From contig JAQSWS010000021.1 of NCBI GenBank assembly GCA_029266495.1, positions 1 through 64,000 of the forward strand: 64,000 bases of DNA. Reading direction: 5' to 3'. Position numbers and translations under genes: made by a program. This document shows, in pieces, positions 42,838 to 62,735 of the stretch (positions are counted from its first letter, which is position 1; every line of letters starts with the position of its first letter). This stretch comes from Rariglobus sp. (GTDB lineage Bacteria > Verrucomicrobiota > Verrucomicrobiia > Opitutales > Opitutaceae). The notes under the pieces were generated by a model. That model had not been told where the DNA came from. It did no database searches and was given only the letters and a program-made list of their open reading frames with translations.

Positions 42838-43704
42838 ATGAAAACCGCCGCCACGGTGCCTTCCGTGCTCACCTTTGAGGACTGGTCGTTCCTGCAGGCG
42901 CACTTGCTCTGGTGCTACGAAGGCGAAGTCGCGGTGCCCAACCGGCGGCTGCTTTCCCAACGCAACCAGCTCTCCGCGTGGTTGCTGCAAGCCGGCTCCG
43001 TCACCGTCCGCCGCGGCGGGCAAACCTGGGTGGCGCGGCCCGGGGAGTGGGTGTTTTGCGGCCCGCATCCGATGCACCAGGAGTTTTCACCGGACGCGCG
43101 CATTCTTTCGATCAACTTCAAACTCGAGTGGCCGTCCGGCGACTCGCTCGTCGAGCACATCCTGCTCGTGCCCGCGCGCGAACATCCCGCACTGGGACGG
43201 GCGGCGCGCGCGTTGCTGCGCTTCATCTCGAAACGGTTTCCCCATGCCGGCACCGATCTGCGTCCGCGGCCGATGGAACTCACCGATTTTTTTGAGATGC
43301 AGAAACTTTTCTCCGCCTGGGCGCAGGCCTATTTGAAGACCATGCTGGCCGCCGGCGTGGTGCCCGCGCGCATGGCCGGCCTCGACCCGCGCGTGCTCAA
43401 CCTGGTGCGCCGCCTGGACCGACACGACTGGCGCGTCCCGTTTCGTGAAAAAAAGCCCGCGCTCGCCACCGGCCTGAGCGCAGGTCATCTCGACCGTCTG
43501 TTCGTGCAGCAGCTCGGGCTGACGCCTCACGCCTATCTGCAAAAGCGCCGCCTTGAATCCGCGCTGGCCGCCCTCGCCGGCTCGGAGGTGCCCGCCAAAA
43601 AAATCGCCTACGATCTGGGATTTTCCTCCGCGTCGCATTTCACCCACTGGCTGCGCAACGCCACCGGGAAATCCCCGCGCGAGGTGCGCGCCGGCTCATC
43701 GTAG
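42838..43704 (+). CDS. AraC-family transcriptional regulator
   Basis: The 288-residue protein has an N-terminal cupin-like sensing domain (about 30-110; WVARPGEWVFCGPHPMHQEF) and a C-terminal pair of helix-turn-helix motifs (about 195-285), ending FSSASHFTHWLRNATGKSPREV. The second helix-turn-helix is well conserved, the first (ATGLSAGHLDRLFVQQLG) less so. It diverges from the FAD oxidoreductase gene and probably controls it in response to a sugar or sugar acid. Its TAG stop is part of a REP-like element. Confidence 0.88.
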   Translation: MKTAATVPSVLTFEDWSFLQAHLLWCYEGEVAVPNRRLLSQRNQLSAWLLQAGSVTVRRGGQTWVARPGEWVFCGPHPMHQEFSPDARILSINFKLEWPSGDSLVEHILLVPAREHPALGRAARALLRFISKRFPHAGTDLRPRPMELTDFFEMQKLFSAWAQAYLKTMLAAGVVPARMAGLDPRVLNLVRRLDRHDWRVPFREKKPALATGLSAGHLDRLFVQQLGLTPHAYLQKRRLESALAALAGSEVPAKKIAYDLGFSSASHFTHWLRNATGKSPREVRAGSS

Positions 43705-44011: not shown

Positions 44012-46603
44012 TCAGGGTGAGGTGTAGCCGGTGATCGTGAACTGGCTCAGCGCGGCGCTCTGGATCGATTCGCTGGAGATCGCGGGATAGAGCGAGGTGT
44101 CACTGAAGAACGTGGCGGAGGTCGTGAAAGCGGGGACGTTGAGCGTCGCCGCGGTGGCCCCGGTGGTGAGGTTCTTGAGCGTGATCGTCGCGGTCCAGGC
44201 GGCGGCGGTGGCACCGCGGTTGAGCGTGAAGTTCAGTTGCAGCGGATCGGAGACGTTGTCCCCGCCGGCGGAATTCAGGCCAAGAGCGGAACCGGCGACG
44301 TTGGCGGTGAGGCTGGTCGCGGGCGTGCCGTTGGCTTGATAGAAACCGATGCGGTAGAGGTCGGTTCCGGAGGCACGGCCGAAGTAGGCGCGGAGGCTGG
44401 TGGTGCCGGAGGTGGCGTTGTAGAAGTAAGTGGGCGCGATGATGGTGGCGGTGCCTCCGGTGGCGGCGGACTGGGTGAAGTTAAAATCGAACACGGTGGT
44501 GCGCGAAGGCGTGGCGGTGTAGCTGACGGGCGTTTGCCAGACGGCGTTTTGCGCGGCGGTCTGGGCGGTGTTGACGACGAGGCCCTTGGTCAGGTCGATG
44601 TTGAAGCTGCCGGAGCCGGAGACGAGTTGCCAGGCGGGTGCGGAGCCGGGCTGGTTGTGCAGGGTGCCGTTCGCGTAGCCTTCGGCGGCGGTGAAGTTCA
44701 CCGCTTGCAGGCCCTCGTGGATCTTCACGTTGGAGTAGCGGGCGCAGACAGCCTTGTTGCCAGCGGCATCGTTGTCGTTGGCGATGGCGAGGTGGGTCAT
44801 CGCGCCGGTGTAGAAAGTGCCAAGCGGGATGAGGTAGGTCTTGGGGCCCGAGGCGGAGACATAGTCCTTGTAGTTGGTCCAGGCGCCGGACCAGATTTGC
44901 GAGCCGGCGAAGTGGAAGAGGCGTTTGGCGTCGGTGTGGCTGTCGTTGTTTTCGAGCCCGAGGGCGATGATCTCGCCGGGGGCGGCGGATTCGACGGTGA
45001 CTTCGAGCACGGTGTCGGGGGTGACGGTGTAGTTGAGCGGGAATTTCCACCAGGCGTCCTTGTGGACGGTGACGGCGCCACCGCCGTCGGCGATGGTGAC
45101 CTGGCCGACGGTGTTGGCCTGGGCGGAGTAGGCGGTATGGTCGGTGCCGAAGGAGATGGCGCCGTTGGCGGAGCGGGAGGTGGCGGAGGGGACGGCGGGG
45201 GTGGTCTTGGCGCCGGACCAAACGCGGACGTAGTCCACGTCGAGGGTTTTGTTATGCACGACGGAGGTGACGTTGTCGTTGCCGTCCCAGCCGCCGAGTT
45301 GGAGCGAGAGGATGAGGTAGCCGGGGGTGGTCATCACGCGGGAGCCGGCGTAGGAGCCGGTCTTCACGCCATCGACGTAGAACTCGATGAGCTGGCCGGG
45401 GACCCAGTAGCAACCGTAGGTGTGGTAGGTGGTGTCGGTGTTGAGAGCGGGGACGGGGCCCCAGCCGCGGGATTGCTGGCTGGTGGTGTAGCCGTCCCAG
45501 TGGATGGCGTGGGATGAGACGTTGTTCCCCCAGACGCCGAGGGTCTCCATGATGTCGAGTTCCATGCCGCCGTCGAACGTGGTGGTATTGTTGGGCGACT
45601 GGGCGTAGTCGGTGCGGATCTCGATTTCGGCGTGGTTTCCGTAGTTGGTGGCCGAATACGAGCCCCACTTCACGGAGGCGTCGGCGACGGGGGTGACATT
45701 GACGGAGCCGTTCAGGACGAGGACGGGGCGGTCGGCGGCGTTGACGGCGTTGCGGCTGTGGAAACGCATGCCGCGGCCGCGACGGAACTCGTCGGCGAGG
45801 GCGACGGACATGACGCCGTCGCCGGCGAGCTGGGACTGGGCCCAGGCGGTGACGTCGATCTCGACGATGGCGCCGGCGGCGGAGTCGAAGCCCCACTTGT
45901 GGTCGAGGTGGAGGGGGTTGAGAGGGGGCTGGTTGTTCCAGTTGATACCGGTCTCGGTCCAGGCGTCGTTATCGACGGCCAGGGCCTGAAGGTTGTTGGG
46001 CCTTTCGGAATCGTTGCCGACGACGATGGTCTTGATGCGGAGCTTGGCGCTGGTAATCGACGAGACGCCGGAGCCGGCGAGGTTCCACTTCAGGAAGGCG
46101 CGGCTGAACCACTCCTTGGTGCCGTAGCCGTCGCGCTCGGGCATGACCCAAAAGGCGGGCCAGAGACCGGTGGCCTGATCCCCGCGCATGCGGGCCTCAA
46201 GGTAGCCGCCGGTCTGCTTGAAGCGCATGTAGCTGGAGATCTCGCCAGTGGAGTAGGCGAAGTTGGTGCCGGCGAAGGCAACGGGGTCGGTGGACGCGCG
46301 GAAGGTGACCTTGCCGTTGGCGACGGTGGTGCTGGAGGGGTTGTTGCCACCGGGGCCCTCGATGCCGGCGTCGCCCTGGCCGAGCTTCCACTTGGAGCCG
46401 TCGAGGGCGGTGCCGTCGAATTCATCCTGGAAAGTGAGCGTCCAGTTCCCCGGAACGCCCACGGGAGTCTGGGCAGCGAGCGGAAGGGCAAGCGCGGCGA
46501 GGTTCAGTCCGAGAATGCCGGCGAAGCGGGCAAAAAAAAGCGCCGGCGAAAGAACGCGGGCACGAGGCTGCACTGACACTCCAGCAAGGGTAGGTGTTTT
46601 CAT
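44012..46603 (-). CDS. secreted GH16 glucanase with domain inserted in the catalytic fold, copy 1
   Basis: The 863-residue protein has a long signal region (about 1-44). The GH16 beta-jellyroll starts at TWTLTF-like NWTLTFQDEFDGTALDGSKW (about 53-72) and runs to GLWPAFWVMPERDGYG (about 161). It is then interrupted by about 180 residues before resuming at GGMELDIMETLG, where Glu348, Asp350 and Glu353 form the catalytic ExDxxE. It ends at LDVDYVRVWSG (about 464). The insert contains AFLKWNLAGSGVSSITSAKL, WTETGINWNN and then ADASVKWGSYSATNYGNH, the parts of a DNRLRE/CBM96 domain in swapped order. Two beta modules follow to the end. Likely substrates are laminarin or another beta-glucan. It is the last gene of the operon and a tandem duplicate of the next gene upstream. 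Confidence 0.88.
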   Translation of the reverse strand: MKTPTLAGVSVQPRARVLSPALFFARFAGILGLNLAALALPLAAQTPVGVPGNWTLTFQDEFDGTALDGSKWKLGQGDAGIEGPGGNNPSSTTVANGKVTFRASTDPVAFAGTNFAYSTGEISSYMRFKQTGGYLEARMRGDQATGLWPAFWVMPERDGYGTKEWFSRAFLKWNLAGSGVSSITSAKLRIKTIVVGNDSERPNNLQALAVDNDAWTETGINWNNQPPLNPLHLDHKWGFDSAAGAIVEIDVTAWAQSQLAGDGVMSVALADEFRRGRGMRFHSRNAVNAADRPVLVLNGSVNVTPVADASVKWGSYSATNYGNHAEIEIRTDYAQSPNNTTTFDGGMELDIMETLGVWGNNVSSHAIHWDGYTTSQQSRGWGPVPALNTDTTYHTYGCYWVPGQLIEFYVDGVKTGSYAGSRVMTTPGYLILSLQLGGWDGNDNVTSVVHNKTLDVDYVRVWSGAKTTPAVPSATSRSANGAISFGTDHTAYSAQANTVGQVTIADGGGAVTVHKDAWWKFPLNYTVTPDTVLEVTVESAAPGEIIALGLENNDSHTDAKRLFHFAGSQIWSGAWTNYKDYVSASGPKTYLIPLGTFYTGAMTHLAIANDNDAAGNKAVCARYSNVKIHEGLQAVNFTAAEGYANGTLHNQPGSAPAWQLVSGSGSFNIDLTKGLVVNTAQTAAQNAVWQTPVSYTATPSRTTVFDFNFTQSAATGGTATIIAPTYFYNATSGTTSLRAYFGRASGTDLYRIGFYQANGTPATSLTANVAGSALGLNSAGGDNVSDPLQLNFTLNRGATAAAWTATITLKNLTTGATAATLNVPAFTTSATFFSDTSLYPAISSESIQSAALSQFTITGYTSP

Positions 46604-46747
46604 GGGGTAGCGCCGGATTCTATCAGCAAGTGGTTGGAAGACGTGAGCCCGCAGCCGACTCGTGATGTGACAAAAGCCGACTCCACCCCTGCCGCGCCGG
46701 CTAATTAGGGGAGCGACTTGGGACCGTCGTCGGACGTGGCGAGATCA
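46604..46747 (-). pseudogene. duplication scar: remnant of the 3' end of the upstream-type GH16 gene
   Basis: These 144 bases align almost without gaps with 49484-49627, the stretch that joins GH16 copy 2 to the 3' end of the third GH16 gene. The remnant still encodes DLATSDDGPKSL and a stop, matching the true end of the gene at 49585. Similarity stops at about 46747. Then at about 46788 the sequence becomes like the region after GH16 copy 1, with only half of its terminator. The remaining bases to 46846 carry no gene. Confidence 0.75.
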
Positions 46748-46846
46748 AGGAGCACGGGCGCGCAGGCGGATGACGTGACGGTGGTCAAGAGGCGTCCCGC
46801 CGGGACGAGCCTTCTGCAAGGAGCGATTCGGGAGGGGCGTGGAGGA

Positions 46847-49483
46847 TCAGGGCGAGGTGTAGCCGGTGATCGTGAGCGTGGAGAGCGCGGCGGTGTGGAC
46901 GGAGCCGCTGGTGACGACGGGATACAGCGAGGCGTCGTTGAAGAACGTGGCCGAGCTGGTGAAGCCCGGCACGTTGACCGTCGCGAGCGTGGTTCCGGTC
47001 GAGCGGTTCTTGAGTTCGATGACGGCGCTCCAGTCGGAGGCGACGGTTCCGCGCACGAGGGTGTAGCGCAGTTGCAGCGGCACGGAGGTGTTGTCGCCGC
47101 CTCCGGAGTTCAATCCGAGCGCGGCGCCGGAGACGTTGGAGACGATGCTGGTCGCGGGCGAACCGCTGTTTTGATAGAAACCGATGCGGTAGAGATCGGT
47201 GCCGGAGGCGCGGCCGAAGTAGGCGGACACGTTGGAGGCGCCGGAGGTCGCGTTGAGGAAGTTCGTCAACGACACGATGGTCGGGGTGCCGGACGTGGCG
47301 GCGGACTGGGTGAACTCGAAGTCGAGCACGGCGGTGCGCGAGGCGACGGCGGTGAAATCAACCGGGGTCTGCCAGACGGCGTTTTGCGTGGCGGTCTGGG
47401 CGGTGTTCACGACGAGGCCCTGGGTGAGGTTGACGTTGAAGCTGCCGGAACCGGACACGAGCTGCCAGGCGGGGGCGGAGACGGGCTGGTTGTGCAGCGT
47501 GCCGTTGGCGTAGCCTTCGGTGGCGGTGAAGTTGACGTCTTGCAGGCCCTCGTGGACGCGAACGTTGGTGTAGCGGGCCGCGACCTTGCCGCCGGCATCG
47601 TTGTCGTTGGCGAAGGCGAGATAGAGCATCGGTCCGGTGTAGAACTGGCCGATGGGGATGACGTAGGTCTTGGGGCCGGTGCCGGAGACGTAGTCTTTGT
47701 AGTCGGTCCAGGCGTTGGCCCAGACCTGGGTGCCGGCGAGATGGAAGAGGCGCTTGGGGGCGGTGTTGTTGATGTCGTCCTCATCGAAGCCGACGGCGAG
47801 GATCTCGCCGGTGGCGATGGACTCCACGGTGAACTCAAGCACGGTGTCGGGAGTGACGGTGTAGTTAAGCGGGAACTTCGTCCAACCGTCGCGGCTCAGG
47901 GTGACGGCGACGCCGTTATCGGCGAGGGTGATCTGGGGGGCGGTGTTGCCGCCGTAGCCGGAGTGGTCGCGGCCGAAGCGGATGGAGCCGTCGGACAGGC
48001 GTGTGGTGGTCGCGGGGACGGAGACGGTGCGGGTGCCGGACCAGGCGCGGACGTAGTCCACATCGAGTTGTTTGCCATCCACGGCGGCGGTGGGGGTGTT
48101 GCCATCCCAGCCGCCGAGTTGGAGGGAGAGGATGAGGTAGGCGGGGATGTTCATCACGCGCGGATCGATGTGTTCGCCGGTCTTCACGCCGTCCACGTAG
48201 AACTCGATCAGGCCCGCCTCCCAGTAGAGGCCGTAGGTGTGGAAGACGAGGTCGCTGTCGTAGGCGGGCACGGGGCCCCAGCCGGCGGCCTGGTGGTTGG
48301 CGCCGTAGCCGTCCCAGTGGAGCGCGTGGGAGGTGGTGTCGACGCCCCAGATGCCGAGGGTCTCCATGATGTCGACCTCCATGCCCTGGCCGTAGGAATC
48401 GGTGCCGGTGTTGGCGGTGTTGTAGAAGTGGTCGCGGATCTTGAGCGTGGCTGTCGTTCCGTAGTTTAAGTTTGAATACGAACCGGCCGAAACCATGGCG
48501 TCGGCGTCGGCGGCATAGGACGTGCCGTTGATGATAAGGACGGGACGGTCGGCGGAGTTGGCGGCCTCACGGCTGTGATAGGTCACGCGGTTGTCCTTCA
48601 TGAAGGTGTCGGCGAGGCAAAGGCTGTAGGTCTTGTCGCCGATCGCGGCCTGGGAGGCGACGAAGGCGGTGACATCCAGGTCGATGTAAGCGCCGACGGC
48701 GGGCGTGCCGGCGCTCTGGGCACGCCAAAGTGCCTCGGTGGCGGGCATGTTGCCCCAGGTGATGCCGGTTTCGGTCCAGCTATCGTTGGTGACGCCAAAG
48801 GCGACGACGTTGCTCTTTTGGGATTTTTGGATGGCCGCGATACGCACGCGGAGGATGGCGCTGGTTACGGAGGAGGGGCTGCCGGCGCCGGTGATAAACT
48901 TCAGATAGGAGCGTTCGAAGCCGCCCCATGGTTCGGTTTGCCCCGCGGGGATGCCGGTGGATTGCGGGCCGTAGTAGCCGCGGTCAGGCATGAGCCAGAA
49001 GGCGGGCCACAGGCCGGTGGCCTGGTCGTGGCGCATGCGGGCCTCGAAGTAGCCGTAGCGTTGGGTAAAGCCCTGTTTGACGCCGCCGGTGGTGACGGTC
49101 GAGAAGGTGCTGATCTCGCCGGTGGCGTAGGCGAAGGGTGCGCCACCATAGGATACGGCGCGTTGTTCGGCGGTGAGGGTGAGCACCCCGGAGCCGACGG
49201 CGATATTTTCCCGGGCGTTGCCGCCCTGGCCGGCGATGCCCTCGTGGTGGGTGCCGAGCCGCCAGCGGGAAGCGTCGAGTGAGGAGCTGTTGAACTCTTC
49301 GTTGAGGGTGAGAGTCCAGGTGCCGGGCACGCCGACCGGGGCGGGGGTCTGGGCGGAGAGCGGAAGGGCAAGCGCGGCGAGGTTCAGGCCGAGAATGCCG
49401 GCGAAACGGGCAAGAAAAAGCGCCGGCGAAGAAACGCGGGCGCGAGGCTGCACTGACACTCCAACAAGGGTAGGTGTTTTCAT
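46847..49483 (-). CDS. secreted GH16 glucanase with domain inserted in the catalytic fold, copy 2
   Basis: The 878-residue paralogue of the gene at 44012 starts at ATG 49483 with an almost identical signal region (MKTPTLVGVSVQPRARV). GH16 part 1 runs from about 55 to 172 (GLWPAFWLMPDRGYYG) and part 2 from about 366 (GQGMEVDIMETLGIWG, catalytic Glu369, Asp371, Glu374) to 482. Between them lies a roughly 170-residue insert with RSYLKFITGAGSPSSVTSAI, WTETGITWGNMP, YIDLDVTAFV and then DADAMVSAGSYSNLNYGT. The roughly 390-residue C-terminus is shared with copy 1. The two differ throughout, so the duplication is not recent. Only half of the downstream terminator is left. Confidence 0.88.
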   Translation of the reverse strand: MKTPTLVGVSVQPRARVSSPALFLARFAGILGLNLAALALPLSAQTPAPVGVPGTWTLTLNEEFNSSSLDASRWRLGTHHEGIAGQGGNARENIAVGSGVLTLTAEQRAVSYGGAPFAYATGEISTFSTVTTGGVKQGFTQRYGYFEARMRHDQATGLWPAFWLMPDRGYYGPQSTGIPAGQTEPWGGFERSYLKFITGAGSPSSVTSAILRVRIAAIQKSQKSNVVAFGVTNDSWTETGITWGNMPATEALWRAQSAGTPAVGAYIDLDVTAFVASQAAIGDKTYSLCLADTFMKDNRVTYHSREAANSADRPVLIINGTSYAADADAMVSAGSYSNLNYGTTATLKIRDHFYNTANTGTDSYGQGMEVDIMETLGIWGVDTTSHALHWDGYGANHQAAGWGPVPAYDSDLVFHTYGLYWEAGLIEFYVDGVKTGEHIDPRVMNIPAYLILSLQLGGWDGNTPTAAVDGKQLDVDYVRAWSGTRTVSVPATTTRLSDGSIRFGRDHSGYGGNTAPQITLADNGVAVTLSRDGWTKFPLNYTVTPDTVLEFTVESIATGEILAVGFDEDDINNTAPKRLFHLAGTQVWANAWTDYKDYVSGTGPKTYVIPIGQFYTGPMLYLAFANDNDAGGKVAARYTNVRVHEGLQDVNFTATEGYANGTLHNQPVSAPAWQLVSGSGSFNVNLTQGLVVNTAQTATQNAVWQTPVDFTAVASRTAVLDFEFTQSAATSGTPTIVSLTNFLNATSGASNVSAYFGRASGTDLYRIGFYQNSGSPATSIVSNVSGAALGLNSGGGDNTSVPLQLRYTLVRGTVASDWSAVIELKNRSTGTTLATVNVPGFTSSATFFNDASLYPVVTSGSVHTAALSTLTITGYTSP

Positions 49484-49584: not shown

Positions 49585-51525
49585 TTACTGGAGCGACTTG
49601 GGTCCGTCGTCGGAGGTGGCGAGATCCTTGCGCTGCCAGACGCGCACGTAGTCGATCACGAGATCTGCCGGGAGCGTCGCGGGATCAAGCGGATCGTATT
49701 CAAAGCCGCCAGGAAGGAGGTCAAAAATAAGATATGACTGGACCGAGCCGACGCGGGGCGAATCCCAGCTGCCGCCCTTGCGGCCTTGCGAATAAACGGA
49801 AACGTGGCCGGGCGTCCACAGCATGCCGATGGTGAGGAAGCCGTCCTTGTCGGGGAGGTTGTAGTGCATACTCGTGCCCGCGGACTTGTGATACTTCACG
49901 TAGGAATCCCAGTGCGTGCCGAAGGTGGTGCGATACGGACCCCACATGGACTGGCCTTCAAAGACGTCGAACTCCATCCCGCCGTCCTTGGTGTCGGTGC
50001 GCTGATGTTTGGGCCAGCTGGAGGGACCGCGTTCGGGCATGAGCCAGAAGGCGGGGAACATGCTCGGAACGGCGGGCATCTTCACGCGGACTTCGTAATA
50101 GCCATAGCGCTGCGTCCACTTGCCGTAGGAGTCGAGCCAGCCCGTGGCGAACTCCGTGGCACGCTCATTGGGGTCGTCGTTATGGTGGCCGGCGCGTTTC
50201 TCGATGCGGAGGCGGGCGAAACCGTCACCGAGCAGGACGTTGTCCTTGGAGAAACCGACGCGTTTGTCCCACCAGTTCGCGGCATAAACGTTCCAGACCT
50301 CGGTGTTGAGCGCAGGACCGTCGAAGTTGTCCTCAAAGGTTTTCACCCAATCCCCGGCGACGGGCGGACGCTGACCGAGCCAGGCGGGAGGCGGCACGGG
50401 TGCGGGCATTCCGGCGTTGATGGCAACGATCTGGAAGGTGGACGGCTTGGCGTGATTGACCGGCTGGAGGATCACGCCGGTGGTCTGGTGGCTGGTGAAG
50501 CGCGCTCCGGGAGTTTCCTTCACTCCCCAGCTTTTTTTGTGCTCGAGTTGTTCCTGCTCGGGATCGGAAAGGATTTCGAAAGGCGTCTTCGGGATGAAGG
50601 GGATGACGAGGTCGGCGGTGGCGCCGGGGGCGATGGGTTTATCGGGTAATCCAAAATCGGATACGCCTCCGCGGCTGGTGAGCTGGACGCTGAGTGCGGC
50701 GGGGGCGGAGCCGGTGTTTTTGACCCGGACCGTCACCTGAAGAAAACTGCCGAGATCCCAGAAGCCGCGGACGGGACGGACCAGGATGTTCTGGGCGGGT
50801 TGTCCGGTGAAGGCGATGTCGAGCGGTTTGTCGGCAGCGGCTTCGGCCTTGGCGCCGGCGCGGGCGACGAGCTGTTTTTCCCCGTCGAACGGCACGGCGG
50901 TGCCAAAGAGTATTCCTGCCTTGGGCTTGGTGCGCACGAGGTCGGGGTTGGTCGGTGCCCGGTCACCGGGATTTCCGCCTGCAAGGATGGACTCGATGCG
51001 AAAGGAGCGGGCGACCTTCTCGTTTTTGCCGACGAAGAGAAGGATCCGGCTGATCTGCGCAGGGTTTACCGGGTCGGAACCCTTGGATGGCGAGGCATAG
51101 TAGGCGCGGGCGGTGCCGGACTCGCCAGGCTTGAGATAGACGACGCCGGCGCAGGAGCCTTTGCCGCCGGCGTTGTCGAGGCGGAGAGTGGCACTGATGA
51201 TCTGCGATCCGGTGTTGGTGAGGCGGGCCTCGACGTAACCGGTGCCCGACAGATCATAGACGACGAGCGGGGATGTGAAGCTAACACCCGGGAATGCGGC
51301 GGGGCCGGATTGAATGGCAACATCCAGGCCCTCGCCGGAAGCAGCCCGCGTCACGGTGATCTGCGGGTGGCTGGGTTCGGCAAGTTGCTCCGCGCCGCGA
51401 ACGGAAAGATTCATGACCGGGCGCGTCGCGGCTTCGGACGTGGGCGACGGGAGCGAGTCTTGCGCGTGAAGGAGGGGCGTAAGAAGAAGACCAAGAGTCA
51501 GGACCAGGGAGGCGGCAGGGTTCAT
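49585..51525 (-). CDS. secreted GH16 hydrolase with N-terminal beta-sandwich domains
   Basis: The 646-residue protein starts at ATG 51525 (MNPAASLVLTLGLLLTPLLH signal peptide). A GTG four codons upstream is possible. Two galactose-binding-like domains of about 150-170 residues precede the linker PPPAWLGQRPPVAGDWVKTF and the GH16 domain (about 385-635), with GYYEVRVKMPAVPSMFPAFW and the catalytic GMEFDVFEGQS. The closing strand is VIDYVRVWQRKDL. The EFDVFE form and the WPKHQ segment recall GH16 enzymes on galactans (agarase/porphyranase branches), but beta-glucan is also possible. It has no inserted domain. It resembles the GH16 gene at 58138 in architecture and linker. It lies 56 bases downstream of the GH42 gene. 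Confidence 0.87.
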   Translation of the reverse strand: MNPAASLVLTLGLLLTPLLHAQDSLPSPTSEAATRPVMNLSVRGAEQLAEPSHPQITVTRAASGEGLDVAIQSGPAAFPGVSFTSPLVVYDLSGTGYVEARLTNTGSQIISATLRLDNAGGKGSCAGVVYLKPGESGTARAYYASPSKGSDPVNPAQISRILLFVGKNEKVARSFRIESILAGGNPGDRAPTNPDLVRTKPKAGILFGTAVPFDGEKQLVARAGAKAEAAADKPLDIAFTGQPAQNILVRPVRGFWDLGSFLQVTVRVKNTGSAPAALSVQLTSRGGVSDFGLPDKPIAPGATADLVIPFIPKTPFEILSDPEQEQLEHKKSWGVKETPGARFTSHQTTGVILQPVNHAKPSTFQIVAINAGMPAPVPPPAWLGQRPPVAGDWVKTFEDNFDGPALNTEVWNVYAANWWDKRVGFSKDNVLLGDGFARLRIEKRAGHHNDDPNERATEFATGWLDSYGKWTQRYGYYEVRVKMPAVPSMFPAFWLMPERGPSSWPKHQRTDTKDGGMEFDVFEGQSMWGPYRTTFGTHWDSYVKYHKSAGTSMHYNLPDKDGFLTIGMLWTPGHVSVYSQGRKGGSWDSPRVGSVQSYLIFDLLPGGFEYDPLDPATLPADLVIDYVRVWQRKDLATSDDGPKSLQ

Positions 51526-51581
51526 GCAGGCTGACACATATAACAGCCCGAGGCCCGCCGGCGTGAGTCCGAAGCCGATTC

Positions 51582-53681: not shown

Positions 53682-54433
53682 GAACGGGGAGCTTCCGCCG
53701 TTTCGGGAATCGTTTCCAGGATTTTTCCGAGGAGAAGCCCGATGGGCTTGGGGTCGTATTGACTCGGCGGAATATCGCGCAGGAAAAGCGAAAGGCGTGT
53801 GCGGGGGCCAAGGGTCTGCGGAGTGCCAATGACGCGCTGCCATCCTTGCTCGCCGATGGTGGCGATGTGAAGCCAGGTGCGCCGGTCATCCGGATAGGGC
53901 ACGATAACCGTCTGCATCGACGGGACAGGGACGGCGGCGGGGCCGATTTTCATGGCGACAGGTCGTGCTGAAAAACTGAATACGCGGATCGTTCCGTGCG
54001 GAAATCCCCCGGCCGATTGGTCGAAGACGAGCGACCGCAGAGGCCGGGTGTCGGGCGTGCCGTCCGGCGGTGGCGGTCCCTCGGGGTAGATCAGAAGGAG
54101 CGTTTGGGCGCCTTCACGAGCGGTCACGGCGGCGGAGAGCACGGGCTCCCGCACCGGAGGGAGACCAGGCTCGGCGGCGGGCTTGAAGCGGTAAAGGACG
54201 ACGTTGCCGCCAGGAGGAACAACCGCGGCCGCAGAGAAGGATTGGTGGCCGACGTGGATGGAGACCGGACGGCCCTTCAGATCGTAGAACAGGTCGCCGA
54301 GGGGCGCGGGTGCGTAGAGCTGGAAGGTGGCCGGTGGCAGCGAAACCGGCTGCGCGCGCAAGCCTGAGCCCGCAATGAGCAGCGCCGTGACAACGAAGGC
54401 GTGGCGGATCAGATGTCGGAAGGAGAAAGCCAT
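53678..54433 (-). CDS. small exported protein coupled to GH42 and the prepilin-like gene
   Basis: A 251-residue protein with a signal peptide (MAFSFRHLIRHAFVVTALLIAGSGLRAQ). The rest is beta-rich and Pro-rich (FQLYAPAPLGDLFYDLKGRP, VVPPGGNVVLYRF, LLLIYPEGPPPP). I do not recognise the family. Its start overlaps the 3' end of the large prepilin-like gene by 25 bases and its stop overlaps the GH42 start, so all three are made together. A role as an envelope partner of the prepilin-like protein is a reasonable guess and no more. Confidence 0.75.
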   Translation of the reverse strand: MAFSFRHLIRHAFVVTALLIAGSGLRAQPVSLPPATFQLYAPAPLGDLFYDLKGRPVSIHVGHQSFSAAAVVPPGGNVVLYRFKPAAEPGLPPVREPVLSAAVTAREGAQTLLLIYPEGPPPPDGTPDTRPLRSLVFDQSAGGFPHGTIRVFSFSARPVAMKIGPAAVPVPSMQTVIVPYPDDRRTWLHIATIGEQGWQRVIGTPQTLGPRTRLSLFLRDIPPSQYDPKPIGLLLGKILETIPETAEAPRS

Positions 54434-57400
54434 CGGAAGGAAACGATTTGAAAGCGGCGGCCAAAACGAATGTTTGCAGGCGTGGTGGGCGGCGACTCGG
54501 CGGCATCGGCGGTCTCCACATAATCCGGCGTGCGTTGAACGACGGCTTCGCACCATGCCCGGCCGGTGGTTTCGTTGGTCACGGGGTTGATGACCTCGCC
54601 GTAGGTGCGGACGAGAAACGTGTCGGAGCGCGCGGAGAGGGACGCGCCGACCGCGGAAAGCACGTCGGCCTGCGTAAGAAACTTGGGGGCGAACGCGGCG
54701 AATTTCTGATAGGCGGCCGTGGGCCGGCTGACGGCGCCGCCGCGAGCGGCGGGTTGGGAATAATAGAGGGCGTTGCCCGGACCGGGGCCCAGGTTGGCGA
54801 TGGGCGTGGCCACGCTCCAATAGGTTCCCGGAGCGGCGTCGTTGGAGGCAAAAGCGGACGGGGCCGCAGAGGTGAGCACCGTGGCATCGATGGCCGCCTG
54901 GAGGGCGCCCTTGATCCGCTCGTCCTCGGACGTGGCCGGGTTGTCCACGAGTCGTCGATTAACGAAGTCGGCGAGGGAAACGAAAGGTCCCCGCGCGCGG
55001 ATTTCCGCGACAATGTTGCGGGCGAGCTGGGCGATTTGATGCTCCGAGAGCACGCGGTAGCCCTGCCAGAGATCGGCAAGATCGGGGCCAAGGATGGGCG
55101 TGGTGCCGGAAGGCACATTGGAGCCGCCGGTGGGGCGGCTGAAACGGGTGAGCGCCGCGCCGAGCGCAGTGCCGGGGTTCGCGGGGGTGACGGGATCGTA
55201 GACGAGCTGGTTCACACCGCCGAGAATGGCCCGCCAGGCCTGCTCGGAAGTGGAGTTGATGTTGAAGGCGCCATCAAGCAGAAGGGCGGCGGCCGCTTGA
55301 TCGGGATCGCGCAGCACCTTCGTCGTGTCGCGGACGATGTGGCGTGGATTGGCCGGCAAGGCGGGCAGCGGGGCGGCGGGGACCGTTGAGAAAAAGTAAC
55401 GGTCCCAGAGCGCCCGGTTAAGGAGCCAGCTGTTGTCATAATAATAACGCTGGCGCGCGGCGGCACTGTGCGTGTCGGGCGGCTCGCTGCTGAACCGGCC
55501 TGCGCTGGTGGAGATTTGCGAGAAATTGGGCAGCCGGTAATCGGCGAGGCTGTTGCCAACGGCGTAGGCGGGGTAGGTCCCGGAAAGGGAGAGATTGGCG
55601 TGTTGAAGCTGCCCGATCGAAAACAGGGGATCGGCGGCGCGAGGGACCTCAAAAAGCGTGGCGTTGACCGGCTGGTTGCTGGTGGAGTCCCAGTCGTGGG
55701 TCAGGCCGGCGGAGGCGCGGTCGCCGGGCGCGTCGATGATGAACCACGTGGGCCACATATTACTGTCGGTGCCCACCTGCCCGATGTAATTGGTGCAAAA
55801 ATTAAGGTCGCGCCGGCTGCGGAAGGAGATGGGGGCGCGGATGTTCGTCTGGGCGATCCAGCGGATAAGCGGGACCTTACTGAGGTTCGCAGTGCGATTG
55901 TTGCCCGTGGAAGAAAAATTCTGGATGACAAAAGTCTTGAGCGCGGGGTCGTCGGAGGAGGACGGGCCGAGCAGGGCGGGCGCCTGGAGTGGATTGTCCA
56001 CCGTGTTACTGTCGTGGCCGGGGGATTCGATCAACTGATACCGCCGGTTTAGATTCGGATCCCAGCGCTCTTGATCGGAAGTGACGTTCGGCGCGGTCGT
56101 GCGGGGGACGCCGAGATAAAGCGTCATGCCGCCCGAAGCGGGACTGGCCAGTTGCTGCCCCGAGGCCGGGAAGGTGTTCGCGTGAGTCTTCATCCGCGAG
56201 TCGCTCACGAAACGGAACCGGCGTGTCTCCTCACCGGACTCGAACACGGAATTGGACATGCTCGCGTAGGCATGCTGGTTGAGTCCGCGCGCGAGCGGCG
56301 TCGGGCACGGGGTGATCGCACCATCGGTATAGGTGGCGTTGGCCGGCAAAGTCAGGATGAGGCTTTCGCCCGCCTCCATGTCGGGGCATTGGACGAGGAA
56401 GCGAAAAAAACGTTCGGTGCGGTCGGTGGCAAAGCCCGTGGGGATGTAGAGGCCGGCATATTTGATGTCTCGGCTTTCCTTGACGAGCCAGGCGGCTTCA
56501 AGCTCGGGGGGAGTGGGGTTGGCGGGGATGAGCGACGTGTCCTCCATTTGAAGCTGCACGCGGCGGTTGTTGCCAGGGAGGCTGTAGCCCACCTCGTAGG
56601 TGGCGCCCTTCATACGGGAGTTATAAGGGTTCCAGAGGACGACGAGCGGGTAGAGGTTGAAGTTGATGGCGACACCCGGGGCGGGTGCGGAGGCGGCGGC
56701 GTAACGAAAGCCGAGCGCAGCGTAGGTAATCACCGGATACACACCGACGTCGTCGGGGCGGGACGGATCGTTGAAGACCGGCAGGCGTGGCGTCAGAAGA
56801 CCGTCGGCACCCACGGTATTGCGGGCGTGGGAGCGGAGATGCAGCCAGGTAGGCACAGTGTAGGCGCCAGCCTCGTCAGTGGCGTGCACCGGGCGGGTAT
56901 CGGCGGTGGGATCCCCCCCGGGCGGTGCGACATAGAGCAGAGAGGAGAGATCCCGCTTGAGGCCGCCGGCATAGGTGTCCGCGAGAACACCGGCCGAAAG
57001 CGCGGTAAGATCGTGGAACCGGCGGGCGGCGGTGTCGGCGAGCGGCGCGCCCAGCAAGGTAAACTGCCGCGGCGCGAGAAGATGTCCCAAGAGGGAATTG
57101 GTGACCGGATCCGGATTATAGGCGGCCCCAATGCGTGAAGCGGTGAGCGCCGGTTGGGGCACTGCAGGGTTGGCGGCATCCATCAATTCGATCGCGGCGC
57201 GACGGCTGCTCGCAAAGGCGGCAGGCTTGTCGGCAGACGTAGTGGCAAGCGGGAAATTGATGCGGGCCTTTACGCCCTCGTCTCCCACCCACCAGGCGTA
57301 ACGTCCGATGGTCCCGAGGGACGAGCCGGTCAGGCCGGGGAGATTGTTCGCGGCGACTTCGATTTTAACGAGCGGCGCGGCGACGTAGTCGATGGGCGTG

Positions 57401-58092
57401 ACACCGACGACAGCGGAACGGACGCTGCCCGGACCGACCAGCAAGACGGCCGGACGCTCGGTGCCGCCGCGGTCGGCAATGCTCAATGCGGAAGAGGCGG
57501 CGGACGTGACCGTCAACCCGGATATCGCAGTCGTCGGCGAAAATTCCAGGCCGCCGAGGAGATTGGCGGCCGAGACGGTGACGTGCCCGCGGGCACCGAT
57601 ATCCGTGGAAGGATCGAAAGCATCCGTTTCATTGCCACTGACGAGCCAGGAGAGGAGTCGGGCGGGCGAGCCGGTGCCGTTGGCAACAAGGTTGGCGGGG
57701 GTGGCGAGCGCAGTCGCCACGTCGGATGGACGCTGGTCGTAATCGGGGGAAACGGCGGAGCCGTAGGCACCGGTCCAGCGGGCGCTGGGCACGGTCTCAC
57801 CGCCCTGAAGGTCGGCGCGCGCAGTGATACGCTGGTCGGGGCCGGCGTGTTTTTGCAACTGGCCGAGGGCGATGTTGAGCGCCAAGAGCGCGTTCTGGCG
57901 GGCCTGCGCGAGGTGCTGGTTGTTGCTCGCCACCTGGGTTTCCACGCGCGTGAGCGCCGCCAGCGACACGAGCAGGAGGACGAGAAACGCCAGCAGGGTG
58001 ATCGTGATGAGCAGGGCGAAGCCGCCGCGCCGCCGGCGGCGCGGAATGATCAATGACCAATGACCAATGTCCAATGAGGGGGTGGGCGGCAT
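54409..58092 (-). CDS. giant PilX-like prepilin protein (Verru_Chthon cassette A-like)
   Basis: The 1227-residue protein has a prepilin-type N-terminus: basic RRRRRGG, then a hydrophobic helix ALLITITLLAFLVLLLVSLAAL and TRVETQVASNNQHLAQARQN (residues about 18-70), as in PilX/GspK minor pilins. The rest is a very large, mostly beta region with a conserved look (WWVGDEGVKARINFP, PLVVLWNPYNSRM, WLLNRALWDRYFFS) and a C-terminal region (DFVNRRLVD, YGEVINPVTNETTGRAWCEA). This resembles the verrucomicrobial Verru_Chthon cassette A family, whose role is unknown. It should be processed by a prepilin peptidase such as the one at 34.2 kb. The first 17 residues are encoded by imperfect AATGACC repeats. 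It sits inside the glycosidase operon. Confidence 0.82.
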   Translation of the reverse strand: MPPTPSLDIGHWSLIIPRRRRRGGFALLITITLLAFLVLLLVSLAALTRVETQVASNNQHLAQARQNALLALNIALGQLQKHAGPDQRITARADLQGGETVPSARWTGAYGSAVSPDYDQRPSDVATALATPANLVANGTGSPARLLSWLVSGNETDAFDPSTDIGARGHVTVSAANLLGGLEFSPTTAISGLTVTSAASSALSIADRGGTERPAVLLVGPGSVRSAVVGVTPIDYVAAPLVKIEVAANNLPGLTGSSLGTIGRYAWWVGDEGVKARINFPLATTSADKPAAFASSRRAAIELMDAANPAVPQPALTASRIGAAYNPDPVTNSLLGHLLAPRQFTLLGAPLADTAARRFHDLTALSAGVLADTYAGGLKRDLSSLLYVAPPGGDPTADTRPVHATDEAGAYTVPTWLHLRSHARNTVGADGLLTPRLPVFNDPSRPDDVGVYPVITYAALGFRYAAASAPAPGVAINFNLYPLVVLWNPYNSRMKGATYEVGYSLPGNNRRVQLQMEDTSLIPANPTPPELEAAWLVKESRDIKYAGLYIPTGFATDRTERFFRFLVQCPDMEAGESLILTLPANATYTDGAITPCPTPLARGLNQHAYASMSNSVFESGEETRRFRFVSDSRMKTHANTFPASGQQLASPASGGMTLYLGVPRTTAPNVTSDQERWDPNLNRRYQLIESPGHDSNTVDNPLQAPALLGPSSSDDPALKTFVIQNFSSTGNNRTANLSKVPLIRWIAQTNIRAPISFRSRRDLNFCTNYIGQVGTDSNMWPTWFIIDAPGDRASAGLTHDWDSTSNQPVNATLFEVPRAADPLFSIGQLQHANLSLSGTYPAYAVGNSLADYRLPNFSQISTSAGRFSSEPPDTHSAAARQRYYYDNSWLLNRALWDRYFFSTVPAAPLPALPANPRHIVRDTTKVLRDPDQAAAALLLDGAFNINSTSEQAWRAILGGVNQLVYDPVTPANPGTALGAALTRFSRPTGGSNVPSGTTPILGPDLADLWQGYRVLSEHQIAQLARNIVAEIRARGPFVSLADFVNRRLVDNPATSEDERIKGALQAAIDATVLTSAAPSAFASNDAAPGTYWSVATPIANLGPGPGNALYYSQPAARGGAVSRPTAAYQKFAAFAPKFLTQADVLSAVGASLSARSDTFLVRTYGEVINPVTNETTGRAWCEAVVQRTPDYVETADAAESPPTTPANIRFGRRFQIVSFRWLSPSDI
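58045..58079. repeat. AATGACC heptamer repeats inside the prepilin gene start
   Basis: Five 7-base units (AATGATC, AATGACC, AATGACC, AATGTCC, AATGAGG), two of them exact copies of the unit repeated seven times at 37.8 kb. They encode residues about 6-16 of the giant prepilin (LDIGHWSLII). Gain or loss of one unit would shift the frame. Confidence 0.85.
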
Positions 58093-58137: not shown

Positions 58138-60108
58138 TTAGTTTTTGATGCGTTCGCGGAGCTGCCAGGTGCGGACGTAGTCCACGATCATGTAGTCGGG
58201 GAGCTTGGCGTCATCGACGTTCTTGGTGGCCCAGCCGCCGATCTGAATGTTGAGCTTGATGTAGGCGGGCACGGTGGAGACGCGTTCGTTTTCCCACTCG
58301 GCGGCCTTCTTTCCGTCCATGAACCAGGTGAGCTTGCCCGGTTCCCAGAGCACGCCGAAGACGTGCCAGCCGTCAGGAGTGGGGCCGTAAAAGATGCCGG
58401 TGCCCCAGGCCTTGTGGTTGTCGCCGTAATCGTCCCAGTGGACGGCAGCGTTGTGGCGGCCCGCACCCCATTCGCAGAGGTGTTCCATGATATCGATTTC
58501 CATGGCACCGTTGCTGGTGCTGCGACGTTGCCAGAGGTTGAGGCCGGAGGCGGCGCCGCGATCGGGCATGGTCCAGAAGGCGGGCCAGAGGCCGCGTGTA
58601 GTGGGAAGCTTGATACGGGACTCCATGTAGCCGTAAAGCTGGGTGAACTTGTCGTAGCTCTGGATGATGCCGGAGGTGTAATCGCGGGCGGGACGGGCGG
58701 GGTCGTCGTTGTGGTGGCCGCGGCGTTTCTCGGCCTTGAAGCGGGCGTGGCCTCCGGAGACGGTGACGTTTTCGGCGGAATAACGCTGGAGCTGGCCGGG
58801 CTGGAGACCGTCCCACGGGAAGCTGGGGGTCCAGAGCTTGTCGTTCAGTTTTTCGCCATCGAAGTTTTCGTTGAGCGTCTGCACCCAATTACCTTCGACG
58901 GGGGGGCGTTGTCCGAGCCAGGCGGGCGGGGTGACCGGGATGGAGCGGTCGGCGGGTTTGGTGAGGACGGTGTTGAGCGCGCGGTCGCCGGCACTGCCCC
59001 AGCCCTTGATGTCGGAGAGGACAAGCGTGGTGCCGGGTTTGGGGGTGACAAGAAACAGCTGGATGGCGGAGACGCGGCCGGCGTGCAGGTCGTAACCGGG
59101 GGAGCCGTTGTTCTGGCCGAAGGTGAGGCGAAGGGGGACGGTCTCGCCGGGCTTGATGGTGAGCTTTTCGGTATTCCAAGGTTTCTGGCCGAGTTCGTCG
59201 GCGCGGGCGTTGGGGCGGTTTTCGACGCGGAGGTGCGTGACGGCGGCGGCGGTGCCGGTGTTGGTGACGGTGAGTTCGATACCGGCGAAGGCAGAGAGAT
59301 CGAGGCCGTCTTTCGGGGTGACGATGTAGAGATTGGGGTAGCTGCTGGTGGTTGCGAAGGAGACGGTGAGTTTGCCGTCGGCGATCCTGCCGGTGGAGTG
59401 GTTGAACTTGAGTTTGGAAAGGGCGTCGGGGGATTTCAGATCAACGAGTTCGCCGGAGATGGGCGGAGAGGACTGGCTGTTGCCTTCGGGAAGGGGCGGG
59501 GCGGAGGCGCGCGGCGCGGCCGGAGTGGCGGCGGTGGCGGGAGGAGGAACGGGCGGCTGACCGGTGACGGCGACGAGGCGCTTGATGAGGATGGTGGCGT
59601 CGGTCTGCTTGGGGGCGTCGGCGAAAAGTTTGACGGCGCTGATGAGCTTGGGGTCGAGCTTGTAGGCGGGCTGGCCTTGGCTGAGACCGAAGAAGAGGCG
59701 GAGGGTTTTGGTTTCGCCGGGGGCGAGCATGGCGCGCTCGGTGTTCCAGGGAGAATTTTTCCAGTCGCCGGGGTTGTCTACGCGGAGGTGGAGACGCACG
59801 CGGGTCTGGCTGATGTTGCTCACTTCGAGTTCAATGCCGGTGAAGGCGGAGAGGTCGACCGTGGGTGCGGCGCCGAGCGGGAAATTAATGCCCGGGTAAC
59901 CGGAGTCGGCGGGGAGCTCGACGCGGAGTGCGGGTTGTCCGGATGACGTGTCGAGCGTCACGACCGCTCCCTTCTCAGTGCGGATCGCGGCGAGAGCCTC
60001 CGGGCTCACAGGCAGCGTGAGGCTGGCGGCGGAAGTCACGGACGCGCTCAGCGCGAGCAAGGCCAGGCCGGTCAGGAGGGTGCTTAAAAAAAATCGGGGG
60101 GAGATCAT
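58138..60108 (-). CDS. secreted GH16 hydrolase with duplicated N-terminal domains
   Basis: The 656-residue protein begins at ATG 60108 with a signal peptide (MISPRFFLSTLLTGLALLAL). Two related domains of about 160 residues follow, each with the pattern DLSAFTGIELEVSN / DLSAFAGIELTVTN and PWNTE (APGETKTLRLFFG / KPGETVPLRLTFG), probably sugar-binding beta-sandwiches. The linker PPAWLGQRPPVEGNWVQTLNE leads to the GH16 domain (about 405-650), with LWPAFWTMPDRG and the catalytic GAMEIDIMEHLCEWG. It ends MIVDYVRTWQL. Architecture and linker match the gene at 49585, while the active-site motif is closer to laminarinase types. It lies 52 bases after GH1 and 45 bases before the giant prepilin. Confidence 0.89.
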   Translation of the reverse strand: MISPRFFLSTLLTGLALLALSASVTSAASLTLPVSPEALAAIRTEKGAVVTLDTSSGQPALRVELPADSGYPGINFPLGAAPTVDLSAFTGIELEVSNISQTRVRLHLRVDNPGDWKNSPWNTERAMLAPGETKTLRLFFGLSQGQPAYKLDPKLISAVKLFADAPKQTDATILIKRLVAVTGQPPVPPPATAATPAAPRASAPPLPEGNSQSSPPISGELVDLKSPDALSKLKFNHSTGRIADGKLTVSFATTSSYPNLYIVTPKDGLDLSAFAGIELTVTNTGTAAAVTHLRVENRPNARADELGQKPWNTEKLTIKPGETVPLRLTFGQNNGSPGYDLHAGRVSAIQLFLVTPKPGTTLVLSDIKGWGSAGDRALNTVLTKPADRSIPVTPPAWLGQRPPVEGNWVQTLNENFDGEKLNDKLWTPSFPWDGLQPGQLQRYSAENVTVSGGHARFKAEKRRGHHNDDPARPARDYTSGIIQSYDKFTQLYGYMESRIKLPTTRGLWPAFWTMPDRGAASGLNLWQRRSTSNGAMEIDIMEHLCEWGAGRHNAAVHWDDYGDNHKAWGTGIFYGPTPDGWHVFGVLWEPGKLTWFMDGKKAAEWENERVSTVPAYIKLNIQIGGWATKNVDDAKLPDYMIVDYVRTWQLRERIKN

Positions 60109-60160
60109 GAGGGGAGACGGAGAAATAAAAGGGGAGATGCGAGACAGGCGGTGGTGCGGG

Positions 60161-62645: not shown

Positions 62646-62735
62646 GGGGCTTAGTGCTGCCAGCCTGCCTTTCGGCACGCCTGAGGAAAGGTTATGGGCT
62701 TGTAGAAAATAACTTTAAAGTTACGGAATCCTCCC

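What the first reader, a model, noticed from the sequence alone, without database searches (positions are those of the whole stretch)
44012..49483. Circularly permuted DNRLRE/CBM96-type domain inserted inside a GH16 catalytic domain
In both tandem GH16 genes the catalytic jellyroll is broken between AFW-MP and the ExDxxE strand by about 170-180 residues. The insert reads first like the middle and end of a DNRLRE domain (YLKF..., SAxLR, WTETGxxW, PVL) and then like its beginning (ADA-V-GSYS-NYG). The normal order is the reverse, which implies circular permutation with the break in a loop. The insert would lie next to the active-site cleft and could form part of substrate binding.
Basis: partly seen in the sequence, partly recalled or inferred. 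Interest (0 to 1): 0.75.

Follow-up and report, generated by a model that had tools for sequence, protein, structure and literature searches.

The report
Permuted sugar-binding domain inside GH16 enzymes
Two neighbouring sugar-cutting enzyme genes carry, in the middle of their catalytic domain, a sugar-binding-type domain whose chain has been cut open and rejoined in a different order, and the same arrangement recurs in related enzymes from several bacterial phyla.

Summary
The finding holds. P0001 (44012-46603, -) and P0002 (46847-49483, -) are GH16 enzymes in which the strand PAFWxMP and the catalytic strand GMExDIME are 187 and 197 residues apart, against 15-20 in GH16 paralogues. The extra stretch is one CBM96/DNRLRE domain in circularly permuted order. 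For P0002, Pfam CBM96 positions 41-163 come first and 4-35 second; swapping the pieces gives one match over 4-163 with a higher score. A profile made from 25 normally ordered CBM96 copies reads 28 of 28 distinct GH16 inserts as permuted. AlphaFold2 folds the insert confidently alone and inside GH16. Sequential structure alignment stops at the predicted break. Trees fit one origin, then inheritance with the host domain. Carriers are Verrucomicrobiota, Planctomycetota, one Bacteroidota MAG and the myxobacterium Hyalangium. The break lies in the loop bearing ligand residues of the founding CBM96. My reading, not shown, is that permutation turns the CBM's groove face towards the GH16 cleft as part of the substrate site. 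CBMs inserted in hydrolases, and permuted inserted domains, are each known; the combination in a hydrolase was not seen in my literature searches.

The parts
44012..46603 (-). P0001, 863-aa GH16 enzyme (signal-peptide-like N-terminus, by eye) with permuted CBM96 insert and a C-terminal region without Pfam match
46133..46450 (-). P0001 GH16 catalytic domain, first half (residues 52-157, ends PAFWVMPER)
   Evidence: model strand E117-125
45710..46102 (-). P0001 insert, segment A = canonical CBM96 positions about 41-161 (residues 168-298)
45572..45703 (-). P0001 insert, segment B = canonical CBM96 positions about 2-39, plus linker 2 (residues 301-344)
45194..45571 (-). P0001 GH16 second half (residues 345-470) with the catalytic-motif residues E348, D350, E353
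46847..49483 (-). P0002, 878-aa GH16 enzyme (signal-peptide-like N-terminus, by eye) with permuted CBM96 insert
48980..49324 (-). P0002 GH16 first half (residues 54-168)
48914..48979 (-). P0002 linker 1 (residues 169-190; 11-12 residues longer than in the other 27 members)
48527..48913 (-). P0002 insert, segment A (residues 191-319), Pfam CBM96 41-163
48407..48526 (-). P0002 insert, segment B (residues 320-359), Pfam CBM96 4-35
48017..48388 (-). P0002 GH16 second half (residues 366-489) with E369, D371, E374
49585..51537 (-). P0003, neighbouring GH16 without insert (15 residues at the same place); internal control

Best explanation
Each protein is a retaining GH16 endo-hydrolase, most likely acting on a beta-1,3- or mixed-linkage glucan (inferred), with a complete CBM96-type beta-sandwich spliced into the loop before the catalytic strand. 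SHOWN by sequence and prediction: the inserted domain is whole and circularly permuted. Its old N- and C-termini are joined by 0-2 residues between the two profile segments, and its new termini lie in the canonical loop between the strand after the NYG motif and the YLKF strand. Trees fit a single event followed by inheritance together with the host domain. INFERRED origin: unequal recombination within a tandem CBM96 array, which yields a unit of about the same length in shifted phase. INFERRED function: because the new termini sit in the loop that carries ligand residues of the founding CBM96, the permutation points the CBM's groove end at the GH16 active site. The two grooves, plus the conserved aromatic linkers, then form one longer substrate site, as reported for the unrelated inserted CBM of MtGlu5 (GH5).
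For: Order: (28 of 28 inserts permuted, and 2 later ones; 25 canonical copies not). Solved structures: the insert profile maps 135-167 to 8WAB residues 16-48 and 4-135 to 53-186; 7VBO gives the same order, though its first piece (5.5 bits) is not significant on its own. VIA-align joins insert residues 1-139 to 8WAB 48-186 (Z 14.7) and 1-137 to 7VBO 31-179 (Z 13.1), so the insert's last 43-45 residues (9 of them disordered) and the targets' residues before 48 and 31 stay unaligned. Folding. Host fold intact: 226 residues aligned to 7WWC, Z 27.0, across model 14-434. Catalytic-motif E, D, E invariant in 28 of 28. One origin: insert clade 97/92 among CBM96s, bootstrap not settled, and 100/100 among GH16s once one long-branch row was dropped. 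Groove: of the residues shown to matter for alginate binding in TM6-N4 (PMC9971899), K10, K22, K25 and K27 lie in the moved segment and K31 and R36 in the opened loop. Linkers: aromatic residue in 28 of 28 at one linker-2 column; YG in linker 1 (Y 27, G 28 of 28). Substrate: the best solved relatives are laminarinases and other beta-1,3-glucanases, and GH1 genes lie beside some members.
Against: No ligand, activity or coordinates. Most alginate-binding residues of TM6-N4 are not kept: K10 is G in 27 of 28, K25 is K in 4 of 28, Y159 is Y in 1 of 28, R36 is R in 14 of 28, so alginate binding is not expected and glycan binding as such is unproven. The insert changes faster than its host (mean pairwise identity 0.435 against 0.551). 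Linker 2 is modelled at low confidence (block 301-310 at 63). Neighbours are mixed: the window also has a GH42 beta-galactosidase, and 6 of the 10 neighbours scanned are not glycoside hydrolases. In another enzyme, deleting an intercalated CBM made no significant difference to kinetics (PMC13357471, abstract).
Confidence: 0.5

Rival explanations
1. The permuted CBM96 is a structural module: it clamps the loop before the catalytic strand, stabilises or spaces the enzyme, and binds no glycan.
For: The ten invariant positions of the insert (A25, W54, E56, W61, P65, D89, D110, P132, L134, D147 in A4) look like core positions of the fold (inference); the known alginate-binding residues are largely lost; an intercalated CBM112 could be deleted from a GH26 without significant kinetic change (PMC13357471, abstract).
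Against: Conserved aromatics in both linkers; K or R kept at the K27 position in 21 of 28; solved relatives 7VBO and 8WAB bind acidic glycans according to their titles.
Confidence: 0.3
2. The insert is a wall or gate that closes one end of the GH16 cleft and changes the enzyme's mode (endo to exo, or chain-end specificity) without binding along its own groove.
For: Its last strand ends 17 residues before the nucleophile position in the P0001 model; pTM 0.88 for the two-domain model suggests a fixed orientation (inference).
Against: No coordinates to look at the cleft; low confidence in linker 2.
Confidence: 0.17
3. Not a permutation: two unrelated fragments of CBM96 domains (a C-terminal piece and an N-terminal piece) left by decay of an inserted tandem pair.
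For: A tandem pair trimmed at both ends gives the same order; this is also the likely origin.
Against: The pieces are complementary (from 38-41 to 161-162, then from 2-7 to 31-42, of 163) in 28 of 28, fold as one compact domain, and have been kept across phyla with invariant residues.
Confidence: 0.02

Closest known systems
CBM96 / DNRLRE domain (Pfam PF24517, NCBIfam NF033679; TM6-N4, PDB 7VBO; chondroitinase CBM, PDB 8WAB)
   Same: Profile match over the whole family length once re-ordered; same beta-sandwich by alignment to 8WAB and 7VBO; W, E, P and D motif positions kept.
   Different: Strand order circularly permuted; located inside a catalytic domain; alginate-binding residues of TM6-N4 mostly replaced.
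GH16 laminarinase-type endo-beta-1,3-glucanases (e.g. 3AZX, 6XOF, 4BQ1, 7WWC)
   Same: GH16 fold and ExDxxE catalytic motif.
   Different: Loop before the catalytic strand replaced by a domain of about 180 residues; substrate untested.
MtGlu5, GH5 endoglucanase with an inserted CBM29-like domain (PMC9063844)
   Same: CBM inserted in the catalytic domain; the authors suggest one continuous groove from CD to CBM.
   Different: Different GH and CBM families. I read only the outline, introduction and conclusions, and saw no permutation described there.
GH26 beta-mannanase with intercalated CBM112 (PMC13357471, abstract and passages); the same paper cites internal CBMs in GH10, GH13 and GH148
   Same: CBM intercalated in a catalytic domain, present in many homologues (61 of 82 CBM112 proteins by that paper).
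   Different: Other families; deletion of that CBM had no significant kinetic effect; the word 'circular' does not occur in its main text.
Circularly permuted inserted domains of RNA polymerase (Manriquez-Sandoval & Fried 2022, as cited in PMC13114784)
   Same: Insertion and circular permutation in one domain.
   Different: Not a hydrolase and not a CBM; known to me only through the citing passage.
Engineered circularly permuted RoCBM21, CP90 (PMC3511584, search listing only)
   Same: Permutation of a CBM changes its binding properties.
   Different: Man-made, in a starch-binding domain of another CBM family; no insertion in an enzyme mentioned in the listing.

Membership tests
CBM96 / DNRLRE (PF24517, NF033679), by sequence | Whole-protein score above the curated cut-off | tested here: met
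   PF24517 93.7 and 104.7 bits against 26; NF033679 61.6 and 73.0 bits against 34
CBM96 / DNRLRE (PF24517, NF033679), by sequence | Full family length represented | tested here: met
   Positions 41-163 and 4-35 of 164; one match 4-163 when re-ordered
CBM96 / DNRLRE (PF24517, NF033679), by sequence | Canonical strand order (NYG strand first, YLKF strand second) | tested here: not met
   Order reversed in 28 of 28 under the canonical profile. I therefore call it a permuted relative, not a standard member
CBM96 as a CAZy family | Demonstrated carbohydrate (alginate) binding | not testable with these tools
   Ligand residues of TM6-N4 mostly not conserved
GH16 | GH16 profile and beta-jelly-roll fold | tested here: met
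   PF00722 48.3 and 61.8 bits against 22; VIA Z 27.0 to 7WWC over 226 residues
GH16 | Catalytic ExDxxE motif | tested here: met
   E, D, E invariant in 28 of 28
GH16 laminarinase type (endo-beta-1,3-glucanase) | Activity on beta-1,3-glucan | not testable with these tools
   Highest-scoring solved sequences are laminarinases and beta-1,3-glucanases, 115 bits for 3AZX against 74 for carrageenase 9XKT; NCBIfam equivalog models (EglC, kappa-carrageenase) score far below their cut-offs
Hydrolases with inserted CBM and continuous groove (MtGlu5 type) | CBM groove in line with the catalytic cleft | not tested
   No coordinates were available from the predicted model

The most novel reading that the evidence does not exclude
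Circular permutation was the step that made insertion useful: by moving the chain ends of CBM96 to its ligand-groove loop, evolution turned a tethered sugar-binding module into a built-in wall of subsites of a GH16 active site. This founded a distinct GH16 group now spread over Verrucomicrobiota, Planctomycetota, Bacteroidota and Myxococcota.
Probability: 0.35. Interest if true: 0.75.

Novelty: new variant of a known kind. Interest (0 to 1): 0.58.

Why it matters
CBMs inside hydrolase catalytic domains are uncommon, and a recent paper says the reason for such layouts is poorly understood (PMC13357471, passage). Here the inserted CBM has a permuted chain, seemingly formed once and kept across phyla, so its orientation relative to the cleft may well have been selected. 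That makes a direct test possible: compare the permuted domain, a normally ordered one in the same loop, and the deletion. It also shows a pitfall: annotation reports an ordinary CBM96 hit plus a split GH16, and sequential structure aligners leave about a quarter of the insert unaligned.

Tried and rejected
Normal-order insertion: none among the 44 GH16 domains compared (28 inserted, 16 not); the one normal-order CBM96 seen on a GH16 (L041) is C-terminal.

Two independent insertions: the first GH16 tree needed two changes because L041, a divergent GH16 with end branch 1.85, fell into an unresolved fork with the insert clade. I dropped this row, and the second tree separates 28 inserted from 15 non-inserted rows at 100/100. 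I did not run an AU test.

Viral spread: 56 stretches of viral contigs matched the short peptide patterns but none encoded a relative. The scan is limited by its patterns.

Alginate binding: looked at and not supported. The R36 column is next to an alignment gap, so the count of R (14 of 28; the next column has R in 19 of 28) is soft. In canonical copies a pattern match found R there in 21 of the 23 it could read, of 25.

Structural first look with the whole model listed only GH16 chains among the 50 rows shown, so the insert was folded and searched alone.

Literature: no paper holds both GH16 and DNRLRE. CBM96 is in 10 papers and DNRLRE in 9, judged from the listings apart from PMC9971899, of which I read the abstract and two results sections. 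Four broader searches (20 of 154 listed, 9 of 9, 15 of 15, 20 of 45) showed no title or abstract start describing a permuted CBM inside a hydrolase. A search for subfamily work and one for the 8WAB paper gave nothing useful. Subscription papers, and preprints apart from copies held in PMC, are not covered.

Rows dropped before counts: loci that repeat a gene already held (L001-L005, L024, L033 first gene, L035, L044-L046, L049) were left out of the 28. In one search some CBM96 hits had segment A only or no B close by (L013, L064, L068, L069, L072, L073, and copies in L067 and L071); they are in neither the 28 nor the 25. A third Cerasicoccus frondis copy (G428:C23) was seen but not aligned. 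The neighbour genes for one search were 10 that I chose from the list.

Full report
WHAT WAS CLAIMED AND WHAT IS THERE. The two ORFs (P0001, 44012-46603, 863 aa; P0002, 46847-49483, 878 aa; both minus strand) start at matching ATGs with near-identical N-termini and a signal-peptide-like stretch, judged by eye. Pfam finds CBM96 and GH16 in both, each in two stretches; NCBIfam finds the DNRLRE domain. With profiles for the two GH16 halves, the gap between them is 187 and 197 residues in these proteins and 15-20 in paralogues such as P0003 next door and the GH16 at 58138-60420.

PERMUTATION. Separate Pfam scans of P0002 pieces place the first piece on CBM96 positions 41-163 and the second on 4-35. 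The pieces in swapped order give a single match over 4-163 and a better score (120.1 against 109.3 bits); the insert of the L021 gene from a relative, also swapped, matches over 4-163 at 119.0 bits. In 9 further insert-bearing proteins scanned whole, the best Pfam CBM96 stretch starts at 34-39 and ends at 162-163 in 9 of 9, and 7 of 9 have a second stretch, whose place the tool does not print. I split the insert into segment A (YLKF to the end) and B (ADA-NYG to VKD), built a profile for each from 28 homologues, and scanned the ORFs of the fetched loci. The GH16 inserts read A then B, as they must since the profiles come from them, with 0-2 residues between. The informative part is that in 25 CBM96 copies in other proteins B comes before A with 2-13 residues between. 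Other A-then-B pairs were in proteins with more than one CBM96 hit; L051, L052, L053, L059 and L062 are B-A-B-A arrays, where the B belongs to the next copy. A profile made from the 25 canonical copies matches the inserts as two complementary stretches (from 38-41 to 161-162, then from 2-7 to 31-42) in 28 of 28. Swapping the segments improves the total score in 27 of 28 and ties in one, and in 26 of 28 the best stretch then runs from 2-7 to 161; the two exceptions, L037 and L038, have a long linker. The reverse control agrees: under the permuted-order profile, 24 of 25 canonical copies score better when rotated, by 8.1 bits on average. Two genes found later and not used in the profiles (L078, L079) also read GH16 half, A, B, GH16 half.

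STRUCTURE. AlphaFold2 with the 28-row alignment gives mean pLDDT 87.9 and pTM 0.88 for the 441-residue GH16-plus-insert stretch of P0001, and 89.8 and 0.87 for the 182-residue insert alone. The GH16 halves reassemble: VIA-align joins 226 residues across model 14-434 to 7WWC (Z 27.0, rmsd 2.2). The insert alone has three Foldseek matches at E up to 0.001: 8WAB chains A and B, and 7VBO. VIA-align pairs insert 1-139 with 8WAB 48-186 (Z 14.7, 134 aligned, 1.9 A) and insert 1-137 with 7VBO 31-179 (Z 13.1, 133 aligned, 2.3 A); the next match, a TGF-beta prodomain, has Z 9.0. The profile of the insert finds the missing part where a permutation puts it: positions 135-167 on 8WAB 16-48 (22.8 bits), and 138-166 on 7VBO 14-43 (5.5 bits, not significant on its own). 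The model files could not be opened, so geometry was not measured. That pTM 0.88 means a fixed domain orientation is my inference.

WHERE THE BREAK LIES. The residues of 7VBO printed fit the published numbering of TM6-N4 with an offset of 16 (K10-S11-S12-T13, K22-Q23, K25 and K27 all coincide). The break is then between K27 and about G38; VIA-align, which uses the entry's own numbers, starts at 31. In TM6-N4 the residues K10, K22, K25, K27, K31, R36 and Y159 were shown to matter for alginate binding, R36 most (PMC9971899, sections read). K10 to K27 are in the segment moved to the insert's end; K31 and R36 are, by number, in the opened loop. So both chain crossings to GH16 leave from the ligand-groove region. 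Most of these residues are not kept in the inserts, so the same ligand is unlikely. Linker 2 keeps an aromatic residue in 28 of 28 (W 17, Y 10, F 1) and linker 1 keeps YG (Y 27, G 28 of 28).

DISTRIBUTION AND ORIGIN. The own genome has five such genes. In a search of 56 relatives, 4 of the 13 genomes of its genus have a match that spans the insert, and none of the 43 others has a match at that threshold. A pattern-based scan of a collection of 84,980 species genomes returned 20 loci. Eighteen span the whole insert, from 14 genomes by accession: Verrucomicrobiota of several lineages, Planctomycetota, one Bacteroidota MAG, and Hyalangium versicolor (Myxococcota). The other two are a normal C-terminal CBM96 and a GH16 without insert. 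Sampled genomes give full-length matches in 7 of 387 of the own phylum, 3 of 294 of the phylum of the planctomycete syqfu, the seed included, and 1 of 193 of the phylum of Hyalangium, which is the seed itself; the phylum of the Bacteroidota MAG was not sampled. All 28 inserts form one clade among 53 CBM96 domains (97/92, bootstrap not settled), and their GH16 halves form one clade among 43 (100/100), after one long-branch row was dropped. A deep split between a planctomycete/Bacteroidota/G236 set of five and the other 23 appears in the insert tree, and the 23-row side is starred in the GH16 tree. Hyalangium sits among Verrucomicrobiota in both (in a fork of 85/81 and one of 95/90), which suggests lateral transfer. 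Identities of host and insert run together over 378 pairs (correlation 0.83, pairs not independent), with the insert changing faster (0.435 against 0.551). A tandem array in L052 repeats about every 169 residues, close to the insert's length, so a phase-shifted unit from such an array is a simple source (inference).

FUNCTION. The catalytic-motif E, D and E are invariant in 28 of 28; their roles are recalled from the GH16 literature. Among solved structures the family profile scores best with laminarinases and other beta-1,3-glucanases (3AZX 115 bits) and lower with carrageenases (9XKT 74 bits). GH1 genes lie near members in the window (60161-61516), in L031 and in L032 (two), and a GH5 gene in L026; but the window also has a GH42, and of 10 neighbours scanned six are other things (a pectate-lyase-like protein in L028, a CotH protein in L040, two sugar-transporter parts in L009, and two without match). 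I therefore favour a beta-1,3- or mixed-linkage glucan, with modest support. In the P0001 model the last insert strand ends 17 residues before the nucleophile position. I favour a composite binding site as proposed for MtGlu5 (PMC9063844, introduction and conclusions read), at about even odds; a stabilising module or a cleft gate are the main rivals. Against it stands the finding that an intercalated CBM112 could be removed from a GH26 without significant kinetic effect (PMC13357471, abstract).

NOVELTY. CBMs inserted in catalytic domains are known in GH5, GH10, GH13, GH26 and GH148 (PMC9063844; PMC13357471, passages). Permuted inserted domains are known in RNA polymerase (PMC13114784, passage), and a CBM has been permuted by engineering (PMC3511584, listing). 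I saw no natural, permuted CBM inside a hydrolase, as far as their listings go. I rate it a new variant of a known kind.

Noticed in passing
L032:7225-9009 (+), Cerasicoccus maritimus: One ORF of 595 aa carries a complete GH1 domain (11-459) followed by an AraC-type DNA-binding domain (497-576): a hydrolase fused to a regulator's DNA-binding part. Not checked for sequencing error.
   Followed up: no
window 46847-48016 and 44012-45193: The C-terminal 390 or so residues of P0001 and P0002 have no Pfam match, yet are kept in L014-L016; other insert-bearing GH16s carry Golvesin_C, DUF1349, ricin-type or Big_7 modules there.
   Followed up: partly
P0002 insert, 48407-48913: The P0002 insert has a long end branch (0.9) while its GH16 part has 0.3, with an 11-12 residue longer linker 1: possible relaxed or changed selection on the insert.
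   Followed up: no
window 54409-58092: 1227-aa ORF between a GH42 and a GH16 gene without a Pfam match at E up to 0.001.
   Followed up: no
window 42838-63614: Carbohydrate cluster: four GH16 genes (two with insert, two without), GH42, GH1, a PEP-CTERM protein (61809-62678) and AraC-type regulators at 42838-43704 and 62736-63614.
   Followed up: partly
L025, Hyalangium versicolor: A myxobacterial genome holds one copy nested among Verrucomicrobiota; no other of 193 sampled genomes of its phylum has it.
   Followed up: partly
L041: The genome that holds the insert-bearing genes of L024 and L033 also has a GH16 with a normal-order C-terminal CBM96 (Pfam 6-159, 137.9 bits), so both arrangements coexist.
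   Followed up: yes
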